Shown here in pieces: positions 3,205 to 13,153 of a stretch of 13,188 nt of DNA; positions within the stretch are counted from its first letter, which is position 1; the number at the start of each line of letters is the position of its first letter. A model generated the notes under the pieces. The model had not been told where the DNA came from. It made no database searches and saw nothing but the letters and a program-made list of their open reading frames with translations. The DNA lies in NCBI GenBank assembly GCA_016839865.1, contig JAEOTN010000159.1, forward strand, positions 1 to 13,188, in the 5' to 3' direction. This DNA comes from Promethearchaeota archaeon (lineage in GTDB: Archaea; Asgardarchaeota; Lokiarchaeia; Sigynarchaeales; MK-D1). The translations under genes were made by a program, and so were the position numbers.

Positions 3205-4026
3205 ATGAGGCAATACCTTATGCAACTATTCCAAATCACTCCAAACCAAGAAGCTGTATCTGTAAGAGCACACAACCTCGTTAGAGAAAATCTACGAGAC
3301 GATGGAGTTTACATAATAATTGATGATAACAAGAAAACTGTGTGGCTGTACAAAGGTCATAAAGCCAACTTATTGCTTCAAATCGTAGGTGCAACTTTAC
3401 AAGACAAAATGCGTATGTCATTGAAAAGCACGTATAAATCGAATGATCTCAATAAATTCAAAAAGGATAGTGATATCTTTACAGAAGTAATGGATGCAAC
3501 TGTAAAAGCAGGTTTAGCAAAGGAAATTCGTAAATCAAGGCAAGAGCTTGGTGCATCACCCACGGAGGCTAAAAGAAGAGCTTTCATGACTTATGCAGAA
3601 TCTCGGATGCAAGAAACTTGTGTTCATAAAGGTATAAATACAAAAGAAGCAATTCAAGAGGTTTTAGAATTTGAAAATCCTCCTGGTTTTATTCGTCATA
3701 TGTCGATGGTTGCTGGAAATATGTATAATGAAGATACAGTTGTAGACAAGTTCGTTACCGAGAATAAAGAGCATACTACTTTGAAGAAAATCGGGATTTT
3801 ACCAAACGGCTTTTACTTTCTCGAAAATATGTCTTCCCGTTTGTTTATTAAAGAAGGAAAAGTTGTATGTTTAGATCTCATGGTAGAAAAGGATAGAGAT
3901 CTAGGGGAAAATCGAATATTAGTACCAGTATTGCATAAAGAAAAGATCAACCGAAAAGGCGATTTGAATATCCTATTAAATGCATTCAAGGCACCAAAAA
4001 GTGATGAAGTTGGAAGAAGATCTTAA
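3205..4026 (+). CDS. Unrecognised 273-residue protein, possible N-terminal gelsolin-like fold
   Basis: I cannot assign a family with confidence. Residues 33-72 contain DDGVYIIIDDNKKTVWLYKG followed by a helix (NLLLQIVGATLQDKM). This order of two strands, a tryptophan, 'YKG' and an amphipathic helix resembles gelsolin-type domains. Residues 75-155 are lysine/glutamate-rich and probably helical. Residues 190-245 look like a second beta-rich segment (ILPNGFYFLENMSSRLFIKEGKVVCLDLMVEK) that could be another small domain. There is no signal peptide, no membrane segment and only two cysteines. The start is the ATG at 3205; the ATG at codon 6 is an alternative. It overlaps the CCA-adding enzyme gene by 23 bases, so the two are translationally linked. 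That suggests a partner in the same transcript rather than a proven shared function. Confidence 0.7.
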   Translation: MRQYLMQLFQITPNQEAVSVRAHNLVRENLRDDGVYIIIDDNKKTVWLYKGHKANLLLQIVGATLQDKMRMSLKSTYKSNDLNKFKKDSDIFTEVMDATVKAGLAKEIRKSRQELGASPTEAKRRAFMTYAESRMQETCVHKGINTKEAIQEVLEFENPPGFIRHMSMVAGNMYNEDTVVDKFVTENKEHTTLKKIGILPNGFYFLENMSSRLFIKEGKVVCLDLMVEKDRDLGENRILVPVLHKEKINRKGDLNILLNAFKAPKSDEVGRRS

Positions 4027-5500
4027 TGCATTACGTTCCAGCATTCTAGACAAAATTAGACCAACGAAAAACGAAAATCACAAGATTTCTGCTATTGTTG
4101 CCCAAATTACTAAAATTCTAGAACAATGGAATCAAAATAACAGTCAATTCTCTTATGAATTTGTCACCCCACAAGGATCAACAGGAATCAAACAAACCCA
4201 TCTACGTAACGATTCTGATATAGATTTGTTTATTTTCCTCAATCCAGAAAATTATAGAGACGCAATTGATCCTAATGCAAAAACCAGAATAAAGATAAGC
4301 ACTCTTTTTAGGAGATTATGTGATGAGTGGATTATTCCAGCGTTAAAAGAAAGTCAATTTGAGGACATATACATAGCTTACGCAGAGAATCCTTATGTTT
4401 CAACATTTTTAAAGGGGTATGACATTGATATTGTGTTTTCCTTCATTCTCCCTGAAGAGCAAATTCAAAAGTATGGACCTATCACTGCAGTAGATCGAAC
4501 TTATTACCATAGTAAATTTGTTACTGAGAATTTAACACCTGAACAGATTGATGATGTCCGTATTATGAAAATGTTCTTCAAGCAGAATTATTCTTATGGT
4601 GATAAATCTCCCATTGCACGTGGTGGATTTATTGGATATGCCGCAGAGTTACTGATTTATCATTTCGGAGATATTTGGTCCTTGTTTAGAAATTTTAAAG
4701 AATTACCATTTACAGCTGTAGATTTTTTTAAGCGTTCCACTTCTGACTTAAGAGCAATCCCACGTGTGCAAAAAGATTTTCTCTTAGTTATGGATCCTAC
4801 AGATAGAAAACGTAATGTTGCAGCTTCTATATCAGAACGTGCATGGATATATTGCCTAAAACGTATTGAGAATTTTCTAGCCACCCCAGAATTGAGAAAC
4901 ATTTACGATGAAAACAAACATGTTTTAGAAAAAGATGACAAATATCTCAATAACCATTTTGTTGTGGTTGAAACCATCCAAGTTAGTGATTCTCATTACA
5001 CAAAAATTCGAGATAAACTATATTCCATTGCTGAGTCAATCAAAAACCTAGCATCTTATGAGTTCGACCATTCTCCAAGGTTCTCATCAGTAGAGTATTC
5101 TATCTATTTTAATCCGTCGAATAAACGATTTTCATTAGCATTCTACACTGAACAATCTATAATTGATTTAGATTACATGCGTAAAGGTCCTAGAGTTGAT
5201 AAAAGCAAGAATTTTGAGAAATTCAAAGCAAAGCATTCTGATATGATAATAAAGAACGGATATAGTTATGTGAAAGAGATTCGGAAATTTACAAACTTTC
5301 AAGAGATAATAATATCTGCTTTTAACGATCGAATATTCAATGAGGTTAAGCTCACAAACATTTCTTCACCCAAACTTTGCCACTATGAAGAGTCTTTGAG
5401 TGCAGTTTATGTCTTGAAGAATTGTGTTTTACCTTATAGAGATGAGCTGGAGCAAATCGTTCGAAAGGTAATTCCGAAGAAACTACATAAAAAGCGGTGA
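4004..5500 (+). CDS. cca: CCA-adding enzyme (archaeal class I tRNA nucleotidyltransferase)
   Basis: This enzyme adds or repairs the 3'-terminal CCA of tRNAs with CTP and ATP in the cytosol. Counting from the ATG at 4004 (498 residues), the nucleotidyltransferase signature is GST at 58-60 with SDIDLF at 71-76 (metal-binding Asp72 and Asp74). A third carboxylate follows in GYDIDIVFSF (Asp140 or Asp142). The archaeal class I stretch AVDRTYYHSKFV (162-173) is followed by DDVRIMKMFFK, the GGFIGYAAELL motif (207-217) and DPTDRKRNVAAS (264-275). The C-terminal GPRVDKSKNFEKFKAKH block and the following EIRKFTNF match the tail domain. It is longer than the Archaeoglobus enzyme (about 440). The usual TWLxG before DxD reads THLRN. 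The start at 4004 gives a 23-base overlap with the upstream gene; the ATG at 3980 would add eight residues. Translational coupling with that gene is likely. Confidence 0.92.
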   Translation: MKLEEDLNALRSSILDKIRPTKNENHKISAIVAQITKILEQWNQNNSQFSYEFVTPQGSTGIKQTHLRNDSDIDLFIFLNPENYRDAIDPNAKTRIKISTLFRRLCDEWIIPALKESQFEDIYIAYAENPYVSTFLKGYDIDIVFSFILPEEQIQKYGPITAVDRTYYHSKFVTENLTPEQIDDVRIMKMFFKQNYSYGDKSPIARGGFIGYAAELLIYHFGDIWSLFRNFKELPFTAVDFFKRSTSDLRAIPRVQKDFLLVMDPTDRKRNVAASISERAWIYCLKRIENFLATPELRNIYDENKHVLEKDDKYLNNHFVVVETIQVSDSHYTKIRDKLYSIAESIKNLASYEFDHSPRFSSVEYSIYFNPSNKRFSLAFYTEQSIIDLDYMRKGPRVDKSKNFEKFKAKHSDMIIKNGYSYVKEIRKFTNFQEIIISAFNDRIFNEVKLTNISSPKLCHYEESLSAVYVLKNCVLPYRDELEQIVRKVIPKKLHKKR

Positions 5501-5640: not shown

Positions 5641-7893
5641 ATGGTAAAAATAAAGAACGCAGATGAAATTAGAGAACTTGTTTCTAATGACAGATACGAT
5701 AGGAAGCGAATTTTCTCAATTGTAGCGCATATTGATCATGGAAAAAGTACTACAGCAGACTTTTTACTTAAACGCGCTGGTTTAATGCGAGAAGAAGACG
5801 CCGGGAAGATACAAATGACTGATACTGATGATGAGGAACAAGCACGAGGTATCACCATCTTTACTTCCGTAGTTTTACTCGCATTTGAAGATAAAAGAGA
5901 TACTGAGGATAAAGTCCCGTATATCTTCCAAATTAACGATACGCCCGGTCACTTGTCATTTACAGGAGAAGTATCAAGAGCTCTGAGAGCCAGTGATGGT
6001 GCGCTCGTACTTGTTGACGCTTTGGAAGGCATTATGACACAAACCGAAACCAATATTCGATTGTCTGTTGGAGAAGAGATGTGTAAACCTGTCATTTTCG
6101 TAAACAAAGTTGATCGATTAATTTCTGAGTTACGACTAGAACCTAAGGAAACCTACGCCCGAGTTGACAAAATCATTAACGAGTGCAACGATATCATTCG
6201 GGAGATTATGCCTAAGGGTAAGAATTGGACTTGCTCTTTCCAGAAGAACTCAGTGGCTCTGGGATCAGCTAAAGATGGTTGGGGTTTCACTTTGGAAATT
6301 TTGAATGAACACAAAATCAAACCAACTTTGGTATTTGAAAAATATGCAGAAGGAGATATCGATTGGCTTCGTAAGAACTTACCATTGGATGACACACTCC
6401 TTCGGATGATTGTAGATCACCTCCCAGATCCTGTCACAGCTTCGGAATACCGTGTAAAGAAACTCATCGATAACGTTGATTGGGATTCTGATATGGGTAA
6501 AGCTTTAATGAAAAGTGACCGGAACGGTCCTTTAATGGGGATAATTTCCAAAATTTTCATTGATCCCAAAAGTTTCAGAGCAACTCTGATTGGTAGAATT
6601 TATTCTGGAACATTGACAGCTGGAGAGTCCGTGTATCTTGTAGGTAGAAAAGAAAAGCAACGTGTGAAACGTTTGGGAATTATGGAATTAACCGATATCT
6701 TAGACATGCAACAAGTTCCCGCTGGAAACTTATTCGCTATGTTTGGATTCATTACACCTGCTGGTGAAACTTTCGTTGGACCTGAATTGATTCCCGATAA
6801 AAAAGATCCTGATGCAACCGTACCTTCATTTGAAGCTATTAAATACGCGTGCGAGGCAGTTGTAAGTCGTTCAATTACGCCTGAAGACCCTCAACACTTA
6901 GCAAAATTAGGAGATGTAGTGAAGAAATGGCTCATGGCAGATAACACAGCGAAATTCCACCTCCAGAAAGAATCCCGAGAATATATATTAAGCGGGATCG
7001 ATCCTTTACAGATTGAAATTCTTACTAAACGAATCAACGAGCAATGTAAAATAAAAATAGGCGAACCAATCATCGTCTATCGTGAGAAGATCACTAGGGA
7101 TGGAGCAATATTTTTCACCAAATCAAGCAATGGTCATAATCGAATTCTCATGCAGATGACTCCATTAGACCAGGAAACTATAGATCTCATCCAATCTGGT
7201 GAAGTCCATGCCGAAATGAACGCAAAAACACGTGCAGGAATTTTGCGGGACAAAGCCGATTGGGATGGTAAACAGGCTAGAAAAATTTGGGATGTTTATG
7301 AAGGCAACATACTTCTTGATGGAACAAAGGGATTGCAAAGATTAGACCGAATTAAATCCTATTGTGTATCTGCATTCCGAGATTGGGTATCAGAATCAAT
7401 CTTAGCAAAAGAACCTGCGTTAGGTTTACTCTGCACCTTTACTGACGCCACTGTGCATGTTGATCCAGCCCATACCGGTTATAATGAGGTTGCAAGTATG
7501 ATGTTCTCCAATCTATCTCTTGGATTCTTATCCGCTGGCCCAAAAATGTTTGAACCAATCCAGAAGGTTGACATAAAAGTTCCTAACGGAAGTGCAGGAA
7601 GTATTGTAAAGATTCTTTCCCAACATCGTGGTCAAATCAAGGAAATCAAACCAGAAGGCGCATTTGAGCGTGTTATCGGAGAGCTACCTGTAGCTGAACA
7701 AATCGGTATTGCAGACGAATTTCGAGGTGCAACCCAGGGAAAAGCATTCTTTGGATACGAGTTCTTAGGATTTAAACCCATCCCACCAAATTTGCAAGAA
7801 GAGGTTATTATGGAAATTCGGAAACGGAAGAACATGCCTCAACAAATGCCGAATACATCATCCTACGAGCGGTTTATTTACGCAAGAAAATAA
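5641..7893 (+). CDS. Divergent elongation factor 2 paralog (aEF-2p type) lacking the diphthamide motif
   Basis: This 750-residue GTPase is collinear with archaeal EF-2, which drives tRNA-mRNA translocation on the ribosome. The G domain is intact: AHIDHGKST (29-37), RGITI (69-73), DTPGH (100-104), NKVD (155-158) and GSAK (208-211). The Asp usually found in DTPGHVDF is Ser106. Domain II starts near residue 294 and is followed by domains III to V. The two loops at the tip of domain IV, which reach the decoding centre in true EF-2, are altered. SPNKHNR reads SSNGHNR (495-501). The diphthamide loop, usually close to HxDAIHRGxxQIxPxxR, reads HVDPAHTGYNEVASMMF (606-622). The target histidine is still present as His611, but its context is lost. 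The C-terminus (YERFIYARK) also differs from the usual EF-2 ending. Such paralogs are known from dph-lacking archaea. It may be a specialised or alternative translocase; a second, canonical EF-2 would be expected elsewhere in the genome. Confidence 0.93.
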   Translation: MVKIKNADEIRELVSNDRYDRKRIFSIVAHIDHGKSTTADFLLKRAGLMREEDAGKIQMTDTDDEEQARGITIFTSVVLLAFEDKRDTEDKVPYIFQINDTPGHLSFTGEVSRALRASDGALVLVDALEGIMTQTETNIRLSVGEEMCKPVIFVNKVDRLISELRLEPKETYARVDKIINECNDIIREIMPKGKNWTCSFQKNSVALGSAKDGWGFTLEILNEHKIKPTLVFEKYAEGDIDWLRKNLPLDDTLLRMIVDHLPDPVTASEYRVKKLIDNVDWDSDMGKALMKSDRNGPLMGIISKIFIDPKSFRATLIGRIYSGTLTAGESVYLVGRKEKQRVKRLGIMELTDILDMQQVPAGNLFAMFGFITPAGETFVGPELIPDKKDPDATVPSFEAIKYACEAVVSRSITPEDPQHLAKLGDVVKKWLMADNTAKFHLQKESREYILSGIDPLQIEILTKRINEQCKIKIGEPIIVYREKITRDGAIFFTKSSNGHNRILMQMTPLDQETIDLIQSGEVHAEMNAKTRAGILRDKADWDGKQARKIWDVYEGNILLDGTKGLQRLDRIKSYCVSAFRDWVSESILAKEPALGLLCTFTDATVHVDPAHTGYNEVASMMFSNLSLGFLSAGPKMFEPIQKVDIKVPNGSAGSIVKILSQHRGQIKEIKPEGAFERVIGELPVAEQIGIADEFRGATQGKAFFGYEFLGFKPIPPNLQEEVIMEIRKRKNMPQQMPNTSSYERFIYARK

Positions 7894-7900
7894 ATCTAAA

Positions 7901-7919
7901 TTTTTATTTCTATTTTTTT
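7901..7919 (+). terminator. T-rich terminator of the EF-2 gene
   Basis: T5 (7901-7905), T3 and T7 (7913-7919) follow the EF-2 stop within 26 bases. The T7 run overlaps the last codons of the convergent minus-strand gene, so the EF-2 transcript would end inside, and antisense to, its neighbour. Confidence 0.5.
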
Positions 7920-9928
7920 ACTTTTGATCCGCAGTTTGAGCATTCCTTCGCACTTTGAGGAAGGGATACTCCACAAAATGAACAGAATATTTTTCTATGT
8001 TTACTTTTACGATCCCGTTTTGCTCGTTTATCCTTTGGTCTTACCTTTGGTTCAGGAGCTTTTTGAGTTTTCGATTGTTGAATTTGACCAATATTATTTT
8101 TAAGAGTCGGTCCGTTGTTAAAGAATGTGGGTTTGGGTTGGATCATGGGTTTCGGTGGCTCTTGTGGTATTTCAGGTTCAGGTTCTGGGATAGGTTCAGT
8201 TGGTGGGGGAGTCACTTGAGGTGGTGGGTTCATTGCAGGAGGAGGTGTTACTACTGGTGGAGGTGTCGCTTGGGGTGGAGGATTCATTGCAGGAGGAGGT
8301 GTTAATGTTGGTGGTGGTGTCACTTGGGGTGGAGGATTCATCGCAGGTGGAGGTGTTACTGTTGGTGGAGGTGTAGTTCTCCATGCCGGATCAAGTTCTG
8401 ATTCTGGTGCGGAAGATGAAGTGTCAGTAACTTCGATCTCATCGTAATCTGGTTGAGTTTGTGGAACTTCGTAGTGTGGGAGGTCTTCTTCGGTAGGCAA
8501 ATGATAATCTGGCTCTGGTGGGATTTCTTCCTCATAATCATGTGTTAAACTTGGAGGTGGATTAAGAACTGGTGTAGAATCAGATTCAGGTTGGTCATAT
8601 GCACTTTCCGTTTCAAATTTTGGTGGTACTTCTTCTGTAATTTCATTCTGTTCTGCAGAATCAATACCAAAGCGTAAATCCGGAAAATCTAGTGATTCTA
8701 GATCTGAAAATGTTTCTTTTATATCCTCAAAAGTAGGAATATGATCAGGTTCCTCATCTAGAACAGTGTTAATTGCGTGCATTTTATCAGTAGGAGAAAT
8801 TGGACGAGGGTTTAAATCGGACTCAATTTGATTTAAGGCTTCAAGCGTAGACTGCAATTCAGCTTGGACTTCTTCCAAAGATTGTAATCCTTCTGAAATC
8901 ACGGGATCTTGAGGAACTATAGTAGAGGGTGAGGGTGTACCAAGTGGTAATGGAGGAGGGGCAAGTTCAGGCTCTAGTTCTGGTTGTGGTTGTGGTTCCA
9001 CGGTTGCTGAAGGTGGAACACTAACAGGAACGAGAGGTTCTTCCTCTAATTCGAGCAATGACATCAATTTATAAGTTTCTTGCTTCAATAGGGGAAAGTT
9101 TTTGTTCTCACTGATGGTTTGTACGGCTTTAATCTTCTGTAGCACATCGGCAGTACCTAAATTACCACTCAAATATTCAATATAAATGATTAGCAGGTTG
9201 TAAAAGTGCTGCAGTTGTGTTTCTTCTATTTGTGAAGCATTTTTTTTCCCCGTGATGACAAATTTCACCAAATTATCCCTTTGCATTTTCATTTGTCCGG
9301 GATCGGTAATTTTGTATACTTCTTTTTCTAAAAGATTGTAGAAATTATTGATGACGCTGTAACAATCCATGCATATGAAATCCTCGTTGATAACTTCATC
9401 TTCTAAATCGACATTGGTGTGAACTGTCAACGCACTAGAACATCGGTTACAACGTGGTATTTTAAATACATGATCAGCAAAATGTAAATGTAAATTCTTG
9501 TGTATCAAGCTCTGCAATATCATTACATTTTCTTCAGATGATTCGATTTCTGCTGCTCCAGCAATTATAGGTTGTTCTAATCCAAAAGGAATTTGAGGTA
9601 AGCTCCTATGAAAGACAAATTCTATTGTTAGGGTATTTTCTGATAGTTGGTATTCAGTGATGTGATTAATTGATAAAATGAACGCAGAATTTTCGTTAAT
9701 ATCAGTAAATTGAAGTTTATTGAATATTTCATAGTATCCTGTTATGAGAGTGCGTGGTTTATGGATTTCAGTTGTGCGAGAATCATAATAAGAATCTATA
9801 TTGTATGTTCCTTCAATGTCCATCGCAATTTCTTCATCAGAATGAGGAGTAAAGTACCATTTGATGTTGATATTCTGTAAATGTACTTCACCCTGACTTT
9901 TTAGCAGTGTATCGATTGTTAAACTCAT
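7910..9928 (-). CDS. Large proline-rich protein with two zinc-binding Cys4 sites
   Basis: I do not recognise a named family for this 672-residue protein. Residues 1-155 form a beta-rich domain of unknown type. A Cys4 site follows (C160-x2-C163, C186-x2-C189), then a helical segment to about 292. Residues 293-520 are acidic, rich in Pro, Glu, Ser and Thr, and probably disordered, with a short predicted helix near 345-370. Residues 522-576 consist of three 18-residue repeats built on TPPPAMNPPPQxTPPP. A PEPEP stretch and a basic segment (628-646) lead to a C-terminal zinc ribbon (C649-x2-C652, C663-x2-C666). There is no signal peptide or membrane span, so it is probably a cytosolic scaffold. 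Disordered Pro-rich linkers beside zinc ribbons fit an Asgard-type protein. A polyproline partner such as profilin is possible but unproven. The ATG at 9926-9928 is the only in-frame start with the N-terminal domain complete. Confidence 0.85.
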   Translation of the reverse strand: MSLTIDTLLKSQGEVHLQNINIKWYFTPHSDEEIAMDIEGTYNIDSYYDSRTTEIHKPRTLITGYYEIFNKLQFTDINENSAFILSINHITEYQLSENTLTIEFVFHRSLPQIPFGLEQPIIAGAAEIESSEENVMILQSLIHKNLHLHFADHVFKIPRCNRCSSALTVHTNVDLEDEVINEDFICMDCYSVINNFYNLLEKEVYKITDPGQMKMQRDNLVKFVITGKKNASQIEETQLQHFYNLLIIYIEYLSGNLGTADVLQKIKAVQTISENKNFPLLKQETYKLMSLLELEEEPLVPVSVPPSATVEPQPQPELEPELAPPPLPLGTPSPSTIVPQDPVISEGLQSLEEVQAELQSTLEALNQIESDLNPRPISPTDKMHAINTVLDEEPDHIPTFEDIKETFSDLESLDFPDLRFGIDSAEQNEITEEVPPKFETESAYDQPESDSTPVLNPPPSLTHDYEEEIPPEPDYHLPTEEDLPHYEVPQTQPDYDEIEVTDTSSSAPESELDPAWRTTPPPTVTPPPAMNPPPQVTPPPTLTPPPAMNPPPQATPPPVVTPPPAMNPPPQVTPPPTEPIPEPEPEIPQEPPKPMIQPKPTFFNNGPTLKNNIGQIQQSKTQKAPEPKVRPKDKRAKRDRKSKHRKIFCSFCGVSLPQSAKECSNCGSKVKK
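8202..8381 (-). repeat. 54-bp tandem repeat, 3 copies plus 18 bases, coding for polyproline
   Basis: Units lie at 8202-8255, 8256-8309 and 8310-8363, with a partial copy at 8364-8381. Each codes for 18 residues of the form TPPPAMNPPPQxTPPPxx. Copies differ mostly at third positions, so the array is not freshly duplicated and the peptide appears to be maintained. All units are in frame, so copy-number change would only lengthen or shorten the polyproline segment. Confidence 0.92.
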
Positions 9929-10038: not shown

Positions 10039-11148
10039 TCAGTTTGATATGAATTCTAAAAATAAATTATACTCCCCAAAGCAATTACATTCATTATAAG
10101 GTAGGTTTTCTTTATGTAAAATCTCCAGATTTTGGGTAGAAATGAATTTATTTAATATTTCCAACCAGCGTGAGTTACATGCTCGATCATGGCAGTTATG
10201 TACTCCGCGTTCTTTACCTGCAGCGCTAGGTGAGCATAATATTAGAACCTTATCGAGAATATCTTGAGTTAAAGCTTGTTGAAATACAGAGATGACCGAA
10301 TAAATCCATGGTGAGCGGTATTTTTTGTTATTATATAGATTTTCAGCAACAGTAAATGCTTGAATATTAACTGGATTCAGCGATATCGAATCTACACCCC
10401 ACATCACCGCATCTGTAATACTATGAACGGCATCTCGTATTGCAGTTTTTTCATTGAGAAATGGAGGTTTAAGTAGTAGGTAAGCTTTTACAAGAACTCC
10501 GCAGTTATGAGCCGTTTTGATTGCATCTTTAAGATGTTGAGACGAAAAACCTTTGTTAATCAACACTTCTCGAACATAGTCATTTGAGGATTCCATACCA
10601 ATGCCTAATTCCAGAGGTTTTCCATTACAAGCGGTGACAATCGAAAGTAAAATTTCTTCTTTTACAAATTCAGGACGAGTTTCGGCTAGTATGCTTTGTA
10701 CTGAAGGTAGTTTGACGACCTTTTTTACAATTTCAAGGCGAGTTTCAGGATGAAATTCTTCATCATCAAGAAAACTTCCTGAAGAAAAAAATTTCACGGT
10801 TGTTTTTTTCCCTTCTTTCTGGATTTCTTCAAGTTTTGAAGTGTGTTTGTTGATTGCATATTGTACTTGATCTAAGATTTGCGATTGAGCAATGGAATCA
10901 GGACCTTTATCGTTGAAATACCCGCACATTGTGCATCCGGCATCATCAGAACGAGCCCAACTACATGCACATGTTCGAAAGATTATAGTGAATTCATACC
11001 CCATTTCATCATGCAGACGATCCTCAGATACCCATGATGTAACTGGTTTTGTGAGATTCCATTTAGTATGTTTATCAACCCGTTCTTTTGCCTTATTACG
11101 GAGTTTTCTGGTTTGGTTTTTTATCATTTCTGCGATTTTTTCGGACAT
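10039..11148 (-). CDS. raSEA: Archaeosine synthase radical SAM subunit (RaSEA)
   Basis: RaSEA is the radical SAM partner of ArcS. ArcS attaches lysine to preQ0 at position 15 of the tRNA D-loop, and RaSEA cleaves the lysine adduct to leave the formamidine of archaeosine (G+). The 369-residue protein has the wide cysteine pattern of this family (formerly COG1244): FRTCACSWARSDDAGCTMCGY at 57-77, with C60, C62, C72 and C75, rather than the common CxxxCxxC. Other family-like stretches are FFSSGSFLD (residues 119-127), LAETRPEFV, LELGIGMESS and a C-terminal cysteine region (CHDRAC, and CNC at 354-356), possibly for a second metal. No signal or membrane segment is present. The gene starts one base after the arcS stop on the same strand. 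No Shine-Dalgarno is evident, so translation is probably coupled to arcS. The adjacency strongly supports both assignments. Confidence 0.9.
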   Translation of the reverse strand: MSEKIAEMIKNQTRKLRNKAKERVDKHTKWNLTKPVTSWVSEDRLHDEMGYEFTIIFRTCACSWARSDDAGCTMCGYFNDKGPDSIAQSQILDQVQYAINKHTSKLEEIQKEGKKTTVKFFSSGSFLDDEEFHPETRLEIVKKVVKLPSVQSILAETRPEFVKEEILLSIVTACNGKPLELGIGMESSNDYVREVLINKGFSSQHLKDAIKTAHNCGVLVKAYLLLKPPFLNEKTAIRDAVHSITDAVMWGVDSISLNPVNIQAFTVAENLYNNKKYRSPWIYSVISVFQQALTQDILDKVLILCSPSAAGKERGVHNCHDRACNSRWLEILNKFISTQNLEILHKENLPYNECNCFGEYNLFLEFISN

Positions 11149-11149
11149 C

Positions 11150-13153
11150 TTATTTATTCTCCTTCTTCAATTTTCGAATTTTCACAATTGCACCTCTACG
11201 CATTAGTAAAAATGTCCTACTACTCACGAGTAATAAACCCACTCCCAAGTATTCCTTGTCAGGTCCGAGAATTACAACTTCATCTCCGGCACACAAACCC
11301 TCATCAACATGTTCAATACCAGGTTTAAAAATTGTAGTTCCTGTTATATCTAAAGTATTAAGAGTCACTGCAATACCAGAATGATCTGCAAGTCGCTCTC
11401 CTCCTTGAAAATTAAGTTGGATATGCCCTGTATTGCGGATATATCGACCAAGTTGGAGTTTGCCATAACTTTCAAATCCAAAAATTTTCTTAATTTGGTC
11501 ATTACGAGATTGGAGAAAACGTGCTGAACTTCCAATTAACGCAGTCCCAGCTCCGATTCCAAGTTGAAAATCTGCAATCATTTTAATAGTGTGTTCTTCA
11601 TTTGATAGCGAGTCCTTGATTCTTCCATCATCATTTTCTTTGTTCATACTTTCAATGGCTTTTATGATAGATTCATTGAACTCATCAGGATTTTCCGGAA
11701 TTGCAAATGATATATTTTGACCATCTTGTTTAATCCCATCTATTGCCATTTCAAATGCTTTTCGATACCCCCCTTTCAAGTATGCAATGATTTTCACATC
11801 TTTGGGCAGTTTACGAATCCAATGGGTAATGTCATCCGCAGTCAGGTGTAACTCCTCAGCATCCCAATCTCCCGTAACGGATATATCATAATGTGCCGCA
11901 GGAAAAACTTCTTCCAATTCACGGGGCACGACTCCTAATGGGGATGTGATTGTAACCTCTGAGATATACTTATCCCATTTCAGTGCTGCATTCCGAATTA
12001 TCTTTCGAAATTGTCGATGAGATTTGGATTTTGAATACGGTTTACCCATGCTACATGGCAGGAAAATACAAATTTTCGTGTTAGGACGTGGCTCTACATT
12101 ATTTTTAAGTTTACTTTTATATTGTTCCACATTTGGATTATGATAGGATAGAGCACTAGTGCAAGGAAGAAATGCATCTTTGTTTAAACCTTGAACTGAA
12201 TTGAATGTATTGCCATGATCCTTTTGAATGTGACGTAACGCACTAAGAAGGAACAAAGAAAAACCACATTTCTTCTCAATGTAAGTACTCAATGAACCCT
12301 TCTTAATGTTTTTACGAATGCGTTCAATCTCAATTAGTCCATGACGGAGGTTATGGAATGCAAAATGATGAAAAAATGAATTAATATCAGAGACATTATC
12401 AAATTCCGAAACTAATTCGCGAACTACGTCACAATTTTCACACATACATGCATAATCCTCAAGAGTGTTGAGTTTTCTAACCCATTCCATACGTTCATCA
12501 TGTACCAAGTATAATCCGGAATATCCTGCTTGGATGAGATAAGTCATATCAATTACATCAAATCCCAAATTAATGAGAAAGGCATATTCATAAGGTAAAA
12601 TCTTGCCCGATGCAATATAGAGCAGATCTGCAGGAAATAATTTTCTTAATTGTAAAAACAAATCAACCGATGATGTGTAATCAATTTTTTTATTGAATAG
12701 TCCTTCAATTCTCAAGGCAACTAAGTTATCGTAAATTAGAGAATTGGAAACAAACGATTCTATGAGATTCAATAGTATAGTCGGATTTCTTAAATTAAGG
12801 AAGTTCAATGAGATACCGAATCCTTTCATTCGTTCAATTTTTTTTGGATCTTGTTCGATTTCATCTATAATTTCCTTGAAAAATTGAGTATACCATTCCA
12901 CTGCAAACTCATCATATAAAAATGTAGATGGGCAAGTTTTTGTGAAGAAATAGGTGATTTCTTCCGAGGGATTGTTGGGAATCATCTGTTCTGGCATAAA
13001 ATCGGAAGTATAATAGTTTGTATTTGATTGGTGAAGGATTAGATGGTTTTCTCGTGTTGTGGGTAAGTCTTGATCTGGGGAACGAATCGTATATAGGAGA
13101 TTTTGTGTTTTTAGAATGGTTGAGTAAAACTTATTCTCTAGAAGATAATCCAT
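11150..13153 (-). CDS. arcS: Archaeosine synthase subunit alpha (ArcS, TGT-like)
   Basis: ArcS is a tRNA-guanine-transglycosylase-like protein. It transfers lysine to the nitrile of preQ0 in tRNA, the step before RaSEA forms archaeosine at position 15. The 667-residue protein carries the ArcS signature PC-x3-KPY-x2-S-x2-H exactly, as PCSMGKPYSKSKSH at 366-379. An N-terminal TGT-like barrel spans about 60-300 and keeps a zinc site, C236-x-C238-x2-C241-x25-H267. A central domain holds the signature and YLKGGYRKAF (458-467). A C-terminal PUA domain (about 585-660, including GDEVVILGPDKEYLGVG and RRGAIVKIRK) binds the tRNA acceptor end. The start is the ATG at 13151-13153, 35 bases from the window edge; an N-terminal extension beyond the visible stretch cannot be judged. 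ArcTGT, which inserts preQ0, is not in the window. Confidence 0.94.
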   Translation of the reverse strand: MDYLLENKFYSTILKTQNLLYTIRSPDQDLPTTRENHLILHQSNTNYYTSDFMPEQMIPNNPSEEITYFFTKTCPSTFLYDEFAVEWYTQFFKEIIDEIEQDPKKIERMKGFGISLNFLNLRNPTILLNLIESFVSNSLIYDNLVALRIEGLFNKKIDYTSSVDLFLQLRKLFPADLLYIASGKILPYEYAFLINLGFDVIDMTYLIQAGYSGLYLVHDERMEWVRKLNTLEDYACMCENCDVVRELVSEFDNVSDINSFFHHFAFHNLRHGLIEIERIRKNIKKGSLSTYIEKKCGFSLFLLSALRHIQKDHGNTFNSVQGLNKDAFLPCTSALSYHNPNVEQYKSKLKNNVEPRPNTKICIFLPCSMGKPYSKSKSHRQFRKIIRNAALKWDKYISEVTITSPLGVVPRELEEVFPAAHYDISVTGDWDAEELHLTADDITHWIRKLPKDVKIIAYLKGGYRKAFEMAIDGIKQDGQNISFAIPENPDEFNESIIKAIESMNKENDDGRIKDSLSNEEHTIKMIADFQLGIGAGTALIGSSARFLQSRNDQIKKIFGFESYGKLQLGRYIRNTGHIQLNFQGGERLADHSGIAVTLNTLDITGTTIFKPGIEHVDEGLCAGDEVVILGPDKEYLGVGLLLVSSRTFLLMRRGAIVKIRKLKKENK

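What the first reader, a model, noticed from the sequence alone, without database searches (positions are those of the whole stretch)
7456..7506. EF-2 with a destroyed diphthamide loop but the target histidine kept
In archaeal and eukaryotic EF-2 the loop around the diphthamide histidine (HxDAIHRGxxQIxPxxR) is nearly invariant. Here residues 606-622 read HVDPAHTGYNEVASMMF. His611 (CAT at 7471-7473) aligns with the modified histidine, but the flanking Ile, Arg, Gln, Pro and final Arg are replaced. EF-2 paralogs with this loss have been described in dph-lacking Asgard and related archaea (Narrowe et al. 2018). The GTPase motifs are intact, so this is not decay: it looks like a translocase-like GTPase retuned for another task, such as a different ribosome state or a stress or ribosome-recycling role.
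Basis: partly seen in the sequence, partly recalled or inferred. Interest (0 to 1): 0.75.

Follow-up and report, generated by a model that had tools for sequence, protein, structure and literature searches.

The report
Lokiarchaeal EF-2 lacking diphthamide-type loop
This is one of two elongation factor 2 genes carried by Lokiarchaea and other Asgard archaea that have lost the diphthamide modification; it keeps the parts that touch tRNA and mRNA, so it is probably the working ribosome motor, and its partner copy is the one that lost them.

Summary
In detail: residues 606-622 of the EF-2 at 5641-7893 read HVDPAHTGYNEVASMMF, with His611 at 7471-7473. "Destroyed" is too strong. It is a conserved alternative loop: H606, D608 and H611 are in 86 of 86 genome copies read and 120 of 120 listed database relatives. 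Only the shell (R612, Q616, P619, R622) has changed.

The window's own genome is not held. Its two nearest relatives (93%, 88%) are Lokiarchaeota MAGs without dph1/2, dph5 or dph6 hits. Of 148 Asgard genomes, 117 carry this "class A" EF-2, and none of these has dph1/2. In 94 of the 117 there is a second EF-2 match, typically "class B". Class A is its own clade; a tree uniting A with B is rejected. Class B groups with canonical EF-2 but has lost the target histidine, the tip contacts and, mostly, a recognisable domain IV.

So the paralogue reading holds, but "retuned for another task" better fits the partner. Class A keeps all four tip contacts tested in 71 of 80 copies; class B keeps at most one. 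Most likely the window encodes the working translocase, using an unmodified histidine. EF-2 duplication in dph-less Asgards is known (Narrowe 2018, not readable here); the functional hand-over is my inference.

The parts
5641..7893 (+). EF-2 gene of class A, 750 aa, all five EF-2 domains
   Evidence: ORF; Pfam GTP_EFTU, EFG_III, EFG_IV, EFG_C over their cut-offs, domain 2 models just below theirs; TIGR00490 563 bits, below its cut-off; AlphaFold2 model pLDDT 84.9, best PDB match an archaeal EF-2 at TM 0.86 (query) / 0.89 (target)
5728..5748 (+). G1 / P-loop HIDHGKS (residues 30-36)
   Evidence: read from the translation
5938..5952 (+). G3 DTPGH (residues 100-104), with His104
   Evidence: translation; equivalent of Sulfolobus H97
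6103..6117 (+). G4 NKVDR (residues 155-159)
   Evidence: translation
7120..7143 (+). domain IV tip loop I, KSSNGHNR (494-501), with His499 at 7135-7137
   Evidence: His499 = Sulfolobus H491; kept in 71 of 80 class A rows
7456..7506 (+). domain IV tip loop II, the diphthamide loop, residues 606-622 HVDPAHTGYNEVASMMF
7456..7458 (+). His606, invariant in the class A and canonical EF-2 rows read
7462..7464 (+). Asp608, invariant in the class A and canonical EF-2 rows read (Sulfolobus D601)
7471..7473 (+). His611, equivalent of the diphthamide histidine (Sulfolobus H604)
   Evidence: 86 of 86 class A, 2 of 37 class B
7474..7476 (+). Thr612, class A signature replacing canonical Arg
   Evidence: 85 of 86 class A, R in 71 of 71 canonical rows

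Best explanation
The window comes from a Lokiarchaeota-type Asgard archaeon close to MAG AMARA_1. The gene is the class A EF-2 of a lineage that has lost diphthamide synthesis. It is most likely the translocase in daily use. Its domain IV enters the A site and holds the codon-anticodon helix with His499, His606, Asp608 and an unmodified His611. The outer loop residues (Arg612, Gln616, Pro619, Arg622), no longer held in place once the Dph enzymes were gone, drifted to a new consensus with Thr612 and Met620. The second EF-2 (class B), which groups with canonical EF-2, lost the tip and works, if at all, as a ribosome-bound GTPase without translocation, for example in aIF6 release or subunit recycling. 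Shown: sequence, clade, absence of dph hits in relatives, residue conservation. Inferred: translocase activity, unmodified His, the order of events, the role of class B.
For: Clade: class A is one clade with SH-aLRT 100. A tree uniting A and B is rejected, p-AU 0.0027.

dph: dph1/2 (PF01866) is in 0 of 117 class A genomes and 14 of the other 31. The nearest genomes G001 and G002 have no PF01866, TIGR00522 or PF01902 hit.

Tip contacts: in Sulfolobus aEF2, K490, H491, D601 and H604 touch tRNA (PMC10516650, passages). In yeast, Diph699 acts with His583, Asp696 and His694 (PMC8674143, passages). Of {H499, H606, D608, H611}, canonical rows keep four in 71 of 71; class A keeps four in 71 of 80 and three in 9 of 80; class B keeps none in 26 of 35 and one in 9 of 35. 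The GTPase-centre residues E66, Q67 and H104 are kept in 80, 78 and 80 of 80 class A and in 35 of 35 class B.

Constraint: canonical-invariant domain IV columns are kept 0.61 in A and 0.32 in B, while in G, II and III B keeps more than A. Over the same genome pairs A is more conserved than B in 658 of 666. Pfam EFG_IV is precomputed for 120 of 120 listed class A hits and 2 of 120 listed class B hits.

Ordered change: G010, first branch of class A (unresolved), reads HEDPAHTGPAQIVPM, with Arg already Thr but GPAQ and P kept.
Against: Class A is far from canonical EF-2 (stem 0.72-0.82 substitutions per column), and in domains G to III it keeps fewer canonical-invariant residues than class B, so it is not simply a conserved EF-2. 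Lys498 (Sulfolobus K490), a tRNA contact, is lost in class A (G in 50 of 80), and H499 is lost in 9 of 80. Some class B rows keep much of the loop shell (4 of 5 shell residues in 4 of 35). Eleven genomes showed class B without class A (all eleven class B copies there lack His611), against 22 with class A alone. MAG completeness is not given, so neither copy can be called essential. Codon usage did not separate the copies: 14 of 19 genomes favoured A, Wilcoxon p 0.066, and the ribosomal protein operon itself showed almost no bias. One class A genome, G058, has a dph5 hit over the cut-off.
Confidence: 0.7

Rival explanations
1. One reading: the window's copy is the specialised paralogue, a translocase-like GTPase for stress, recycling or another ribosome state, and class B is the everyday EF-2.
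For: Class B groups with canonical EF-2, scores higher on the aEF-2 model (611 for G002's class B against 563 bits for the window) and keeps more canonical-invariant residues in domains G, II and III. Class A has a long stem (0.82) and has lost Lys498.
Against: Class B keeps 0 or 1 of 4 tip contacts in all 35 rows, has Glu or Asp at the diphthamide position in 116 of 120 listed hits, lacks precomputed Pfam EFG_IV in 118 of 120 and evolves faster. A copy without a domain IV tip is a poor candidate for the everyday translocase.
Confidence: 0.17
2. Both copies translocate, on different ribosomes or messages, or in different conditions.
For: 94 of 117 class A genomes show two or more EF-2 matches at E 1e-60, some of them pieces of one gene. 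The GTPase centre is intact in both classes.
Against: Loss of the tip in class B, strongest in ten genomes (G023, G038, G039, G051, G052, G077, G096, G110, G116, G130) where the main match to the aEF-2 model stops at about position 464-481 of 720.
Confidence: 0.08
3. Ordinary decay: a pseudogene or relaxed EF-2 with no constraint on the loop.
For: Several canonical loop residues have changed.
Against: H606, D608 and H611 in 86 of 86 and T612 in 85 of 86; a full-length frame and a confident five-domain model.
Confidence: 0.02
4. His611 is still modified, by dph genes in the window's own unheld genome or by an unknown enzyme.
For: The target His is invariant in class A, and the own genome could not be searched.
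Against: No dph1/2 in any of 117 class A genomes; four of the five shell residues tested, kept in canonical rows, are changed in the window.
Confidence: 0.03

Closest known systems
Asgard EF-2 paralogue pair in dph-less genomes (Narrowe et al. 2018, Genome Biol Evol 10:2380; not held, known here through passages of PMC10307638, PMC5875740 and PMC10989751)
   Same: A dph-less Asgard lineage with two EF-2 genes and changed diphthamide loops
   Different: The phrase in PMC10307638 is a second paralogue that misses key residues for diphthamide modification. The window's copy keeps the His and the tip contacts, so it looks like the partner of that paralogue. Which copy Narrowe named the paralogue I could not read.
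Canonical archaeal EF-2 (TIGR00490; Sulfolobus acidocaldarius 8hl1, Methanoperedens 6u45)
   Same: Five domains, GTPase centre, H499, H606, D608 and H611
   Different: Separate clade, 563 against a 738-bit cut-off; Arg612, Gln616, Pro619 and Arg622 of the loop changed
Eukaryotic EF-2 relatives Efl1/Ria1 and Snu114
   Same: EF-2 derived GTPases without diphthamide (recalled); U5 116 kDa (Snu114) chains match the model at query TM about 0.8
   Different: Those carry other tasks (recalled); the window's copy keeps the translocase tip

Membership tests
EF-2 of dph-less Asgard archaea (two-copy system) | genome lacks dph1/2, dph5 and dph6 | tested here: inconclusive
   own genome not held; the nearest genomes G001 and G002 have no PF01866, TIGR00522 or PF01902 hit
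EF-2 of dph-less Asgard archaea (two-copy system) | a second, divergent EF-2 gene in the genome | tested here: inconclusive
   met in relative G002 (L093, about 30% identical); relative G001 showed one copy only; own genome not held
EF-2 of dph-less Asgard archaea (two-copy system) | clade apart from canonical EF-2 | tested here: met
   SH-aLRT 100
Second paralogue missing residues for diphthamide modification and translocation (aEF-2p, name recalled) | diphthamide histidine lost | tested here: not met
   His611 kept in the window and in 86 of 86 class A; lost in 35 of 37 class B rows, two of which are fragments
Second paralogue missing residues for diphthamide modification and translocation (aEF-2p, name recalled) | translocation tip residues lost | tested here: not met
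   the window keeps H499, H606, D608 and H611 (but not the Lys at 498); class B keeps at most one of the four
Canonical archaeal EF-2 | score above the curated aEF-2 cut-off | tested here: not met
   563 against 738 bits
Canonical archaeal EF-2 | loop HxDxxHRGxxQxxP | tested here: not met
   R, Q and P replaced
Canonical archaeal EF-2 | five-domain fold with domain IV | tested here: met
   Pfam, model and fold search
Canonical archaeal EF-2 | ribosomal translocase activity | not testable with these tools
   needs an in vitro assay

The most novel reading that the evidence does not exclude
A change of motor. When the ancestors of most Asgard archaea lost diphthamide, translocation passed from the EF-2 that groups with canonical EF-2 to a deeply separate EF-2 (class A). 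Class A fixed a His-Thr tip that holds the reading frame with a bare histidine. The old EF-2 then lost its tip, often with an acidic residue at the former diphthamide site, and became a translocation-dead ribosomal GTPase.
Probability: 0.5. Interest if true: 0.65.

Novelty: new member of a known kind. Interest (0 to 1): 0.45.

Why it matters
Diphthamide is conserved across archaea and eukaryotes and guards the reading frame (PMC8674143, passages), yet whole Asgard lineages seem to live without it. If class A is their translocase, it is a natural solution to translocation with an unmodified histidine, and putting its loop into the EF-2 of a laboratory archaeon or yeast would test what diphthamide is for. 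It also warns that EF-2 trees of Asgards and eukaryotes can mix two clades: the copy that groups with canonical EF-2 is fast-evolving and tipless, and the better conserved copy sits elsewhere.

Tried and rejected
I saw none in their listings or in the passages I read, but most subscription papers are not in that library.

Codon usage as a proxy for expression (reference = all ORFs of 80 aa or more in 9-14 kb around the uL14 gene): uninformative, since that operon shows almost no bias in these genomes. Gene neighbourhood: of 8 other class A neighbourhoods compared, plus G010, cca lies beside class A in G001 and G050 and about 4 kb away in G094, but was not seen in the stretch held for G002; RaSEA lies near class A in G001, G002, G135 and G094, ArcS in the first three. 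There is no fixed operon. Class B lies near a gene that I take for aCPSF1 (recalled, no family search) in 8 of 19 loci. Neither settles function. A first mapping of Sulfolobus residue numbers used a wrong offset; one search found offset 7, which fits all seven published landmarks, and one search replaces. Convergence on the bacterial EF-G tip was considered by eye with a recalled EF-G loop and dropped; no call supports it.

Rows dropped before counts: one search left out three partial proteins and used a chosen subset of 60 rows; a chosen 34. Searches used class A over 700 aa (80 rows with the window), class B over 640 aa (35), and every second listed canonical protein of 725-745 aa plus Asgard dph-bearing ones over 600 aa and two PDB chains (71). 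One search kept the longest copy per genome and an identity threshold of 45.5% for class A, covering 86 of the 117 class A genomes; its 37 class B rows include two fragments (G029, G116). The list of 117 was read by hand, fragments included; a 42% fragment in G060 with HEDPAHT was not counted.

Full report
Observation. The gene at 5641-7893 (+) encodes a 750-aa EF-2. Codons 606-622 (7456-7506) read HVDPAHTGYNEVASMMF and His611 is CAT at 7471-7473, as reported. NCBI's aEF-2 model matches nearly end to end with 563 bits but below its 738-bit cut-off. The Ala before the His is normal: S. acidocaldarius EF-2 has HEDPAHRGPAQLYPAVR.

Where it comes from. No genome is held for the window. The closest genome loci are two Lokiarchaeota MAGs, AMARA_1 (93%) and Zod_Metabat.1044 (88%). 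AMARA_1 (L126) shares the order radical SAM, unknown ORF, cca, EF-2, zinc-ribbon protein, archaeosine RaSEA, ArcS with the window.

Two EF-2 genes. The Zod genome (G002) has two EF-2 genes: the window's orthologue, and a second one (L093) without the diphthamide His. AMARA_1 (G001) showed only the window's type. In 148 Asgard genomes drawn from the phylum, 117 carry the window's type, which I call class A (49% identity or more; fragments counted). Of these 117, 94 show two or more EF-2 matches at E 1e-60, some of them pieces of one gene, and 23 show one. dph1/2 (PF01866) is in 14 of 148 genomes and dph5 (TIGR00522) is over its cut-off in 15 of 148. None of the 117 class A genomes has dph1/2, against 14 of the other 31. 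Fisher's p is 2e-11, but related genomes are not independent. One class A genome, G058, has a dph5 hit. DUF71/dph6-like hits are scattered (44 of 148 at E 0.001, 36 over the cut-off), ten class A genomes among the stronger ones; that family is not specific to diphthamide (PMC3541065, title and start of abstract in a listing). Of the 14 genomes with dph1/2, 13 showed an EF-2, one gene each, and all 13 read HEDP[VI]HRG; the 14th, G069, showed none.

Which copy is which. In a 60-row tree class A is one clade with support 100, outside Sulfolobus, Bathyarchaeota, dph-bearing Asgard EF-2 and class B. With 34 chosen, mostly slower rows the picture holds: class B (8 rows, support 96) groups with four dph-type Asgard proteins, though with support of only 80, and holding A and B together costs 39 log-likelihood units, p-AU 0.0027. 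The nearest named protein of those dph-bearing lineages is from Freyarchaeum (P0124). These are quick trees with long branches, and the root is not inferred.

Loop. Class A has a fixed signature: H606, D608 and H611 in 86 of 86 genome copies, T612 in 85 of 86 and M620 in 85 of 86, one row ending before it (86 of the 117 class A genomes were read). In 120 listed database relatives, H499, H606, D608, H611 and M620 are in 120 of 120 and T612 in 117 of 120. G010, the first branch of class A (an unresolved fork), reads HEDPAHTGPAQIVPM. This suggests that Arg to Thr came first and the rest of the shell changed later. In class B, His611 is kept in 2 of 37 genome copies, and in 120 listed relatives of L093 the position is Glu or Asp in 116; the alignment there is weak.

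What the residues do. In the S. acidocaldarius ribosome, aEF2 K490 and H491 (loop I) and D601 and H604 (loop II) contact the tRNA (PMC10516650, passages). In yeast, diphthamide 699 works with His583, Asp696 and His694 (PMC8674143, passages). After fixing the numbering offset with seven landmarks, Sulfolobus H491, H599, D601 and H604 map to window H499, H606, D608 and H611. Canonical rows keep all four in 71 of 71. Class A keeps four in 71 of 80 and three in 9. Class B keeps none in 26 of 35 and one in 9. The shell residues R605, G606, Q609, P612 and R/K615 are kept at 4 or 5 of 5 in all 71 canonical rows; class A keeps one in 65 of 80, two in 11 and three in 4; class B keeps none in 21 of 35, one to three in 10 and four in 4. 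K490 is lost in class A. The GTPase-centre residues E66, Q67 and H104 are kept in both classes, Q67 in 78 of 80 class A.

Constraint by domain. Of the columns that are 95% invariant in canonical EF-2 (238 in all), class B keeps more than class A in the G domain (0.84 against 0.74), in G-II (0.72 against 0.63) and in III (0.75 against 0.52). Class A keeps more in domain IV (0.61 against 0.32) and a little more in V (0.72 against 0.67). In domain IV 48% of these columns are still fixed within class A and 4% within class B. Among 37 genomes with both copies, class A is the more conserved in 658 of 666 genome pairs overall and in 630 of 630 for domain IV. Pfam EFG_IV is precomputed for 120 of 120 listed class A hits and 2 of 120 listed class B hits. 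In ten of the eighteen genomes the main class B match to the aEF-2 model stops at about position 464-481 of 720. The class A model has pLDDT 84.9 and query TM 0.86 to Methanoperedens EF-2; the class B model (P0241) has pLDDT 80.4, with low stretches that include 559-566 and 573-580, and query TM 0.80-0.81 to the same protein's 6u43 and 6u45.

Reading. Class A has kept what translocation needs and dropped what surrounds the diphthamide loop. Class B has done the reverse of what an everyday translocase should: it keeps its GTPase centre and loses its tip. I therefore judge the window's gene to be the working translocase with a plain histidine, and class B a ribosomal GTPase of another use. A plausible one is aIF6 release: Sulfolobus aEF-2 made in E. 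coli, without diphthamide, was used in the aIF6 release experiments (PMC8024482, title, start of abstract and passages). None of this function is shown here. The evidence against is a long class A stem, loss of K490, eleven genomes with class B alone and no codon-usage support. All eleven lone class B copies lack His611 and keep none of the other three contacts except one Asp608, so those genomes would have no tip-bearing EF-2 at all unless they are incomplete; that is likely, but completeness is not given.

Known or new. PMC10307638 (passage) states that many archaea lacking dph genes have a second EF-2 missing key residues, citing Narrowe 2018, and that among Asgards only Hodarchaeales have dph plus a single canonical EF-2. 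The system is thus known, and the window's gene is a new member. I could not read Narrowe 2018, so I cannot say whether the functional split proposed here is already in that paper. In my searches I saw no account of it.

Noticed in passing
window 7910-9928 (-), repeat 8199-8374: 672-aa protein with a C-terminal zinc ribbon and a proline-rich linker encoded by a 54-bp tandem repeat (3.3 copies); relatives in G001 and G002.
   Followed up: partly
window 3205-4026 (+) and 3980-5500 (+): An unknown 273-aa ORF overlaps the start of a divergent archaeal CCA-adding enzyme (185 bits, cut-off 281). The pair is kept in G001 and, weakly, in G094.
   Followed up: partly
window 10039-11148 (-) and 11150-13153 (-): Archaeosine RaSEA and an ArcS-like subunit (293 bits, cut-off 440) lie side by side near EF-2.
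   Followed up: no
L017-L019, L023, L024, L028 (G040, G032, G059, G006, G047, G053): Six Asgard genomes with dph1/2, dph5 and one EF-2 with the canonical loop.
   Followed up: partly
L079-L084 (G081, G125, G072, G087, G131, G146): dph1/2-bearing genomes with a single 811-818 aa EF-2 on a long separate branch; perhaps the eukaryote-like Hodarchaeales type (my guess, not tested).
   Followed up: no
G012 contig C137:6-2057 (-) and 3217-5313 (+): Class A and class B EF-2 genes are neighbours, transcribed apart from each other.
   Followed up: no
class B proteins P0241-P0360: Glu or Asp sits at the former diphthamide position in 116 of 120, which looks like more than random decay.
   Followed up: partly
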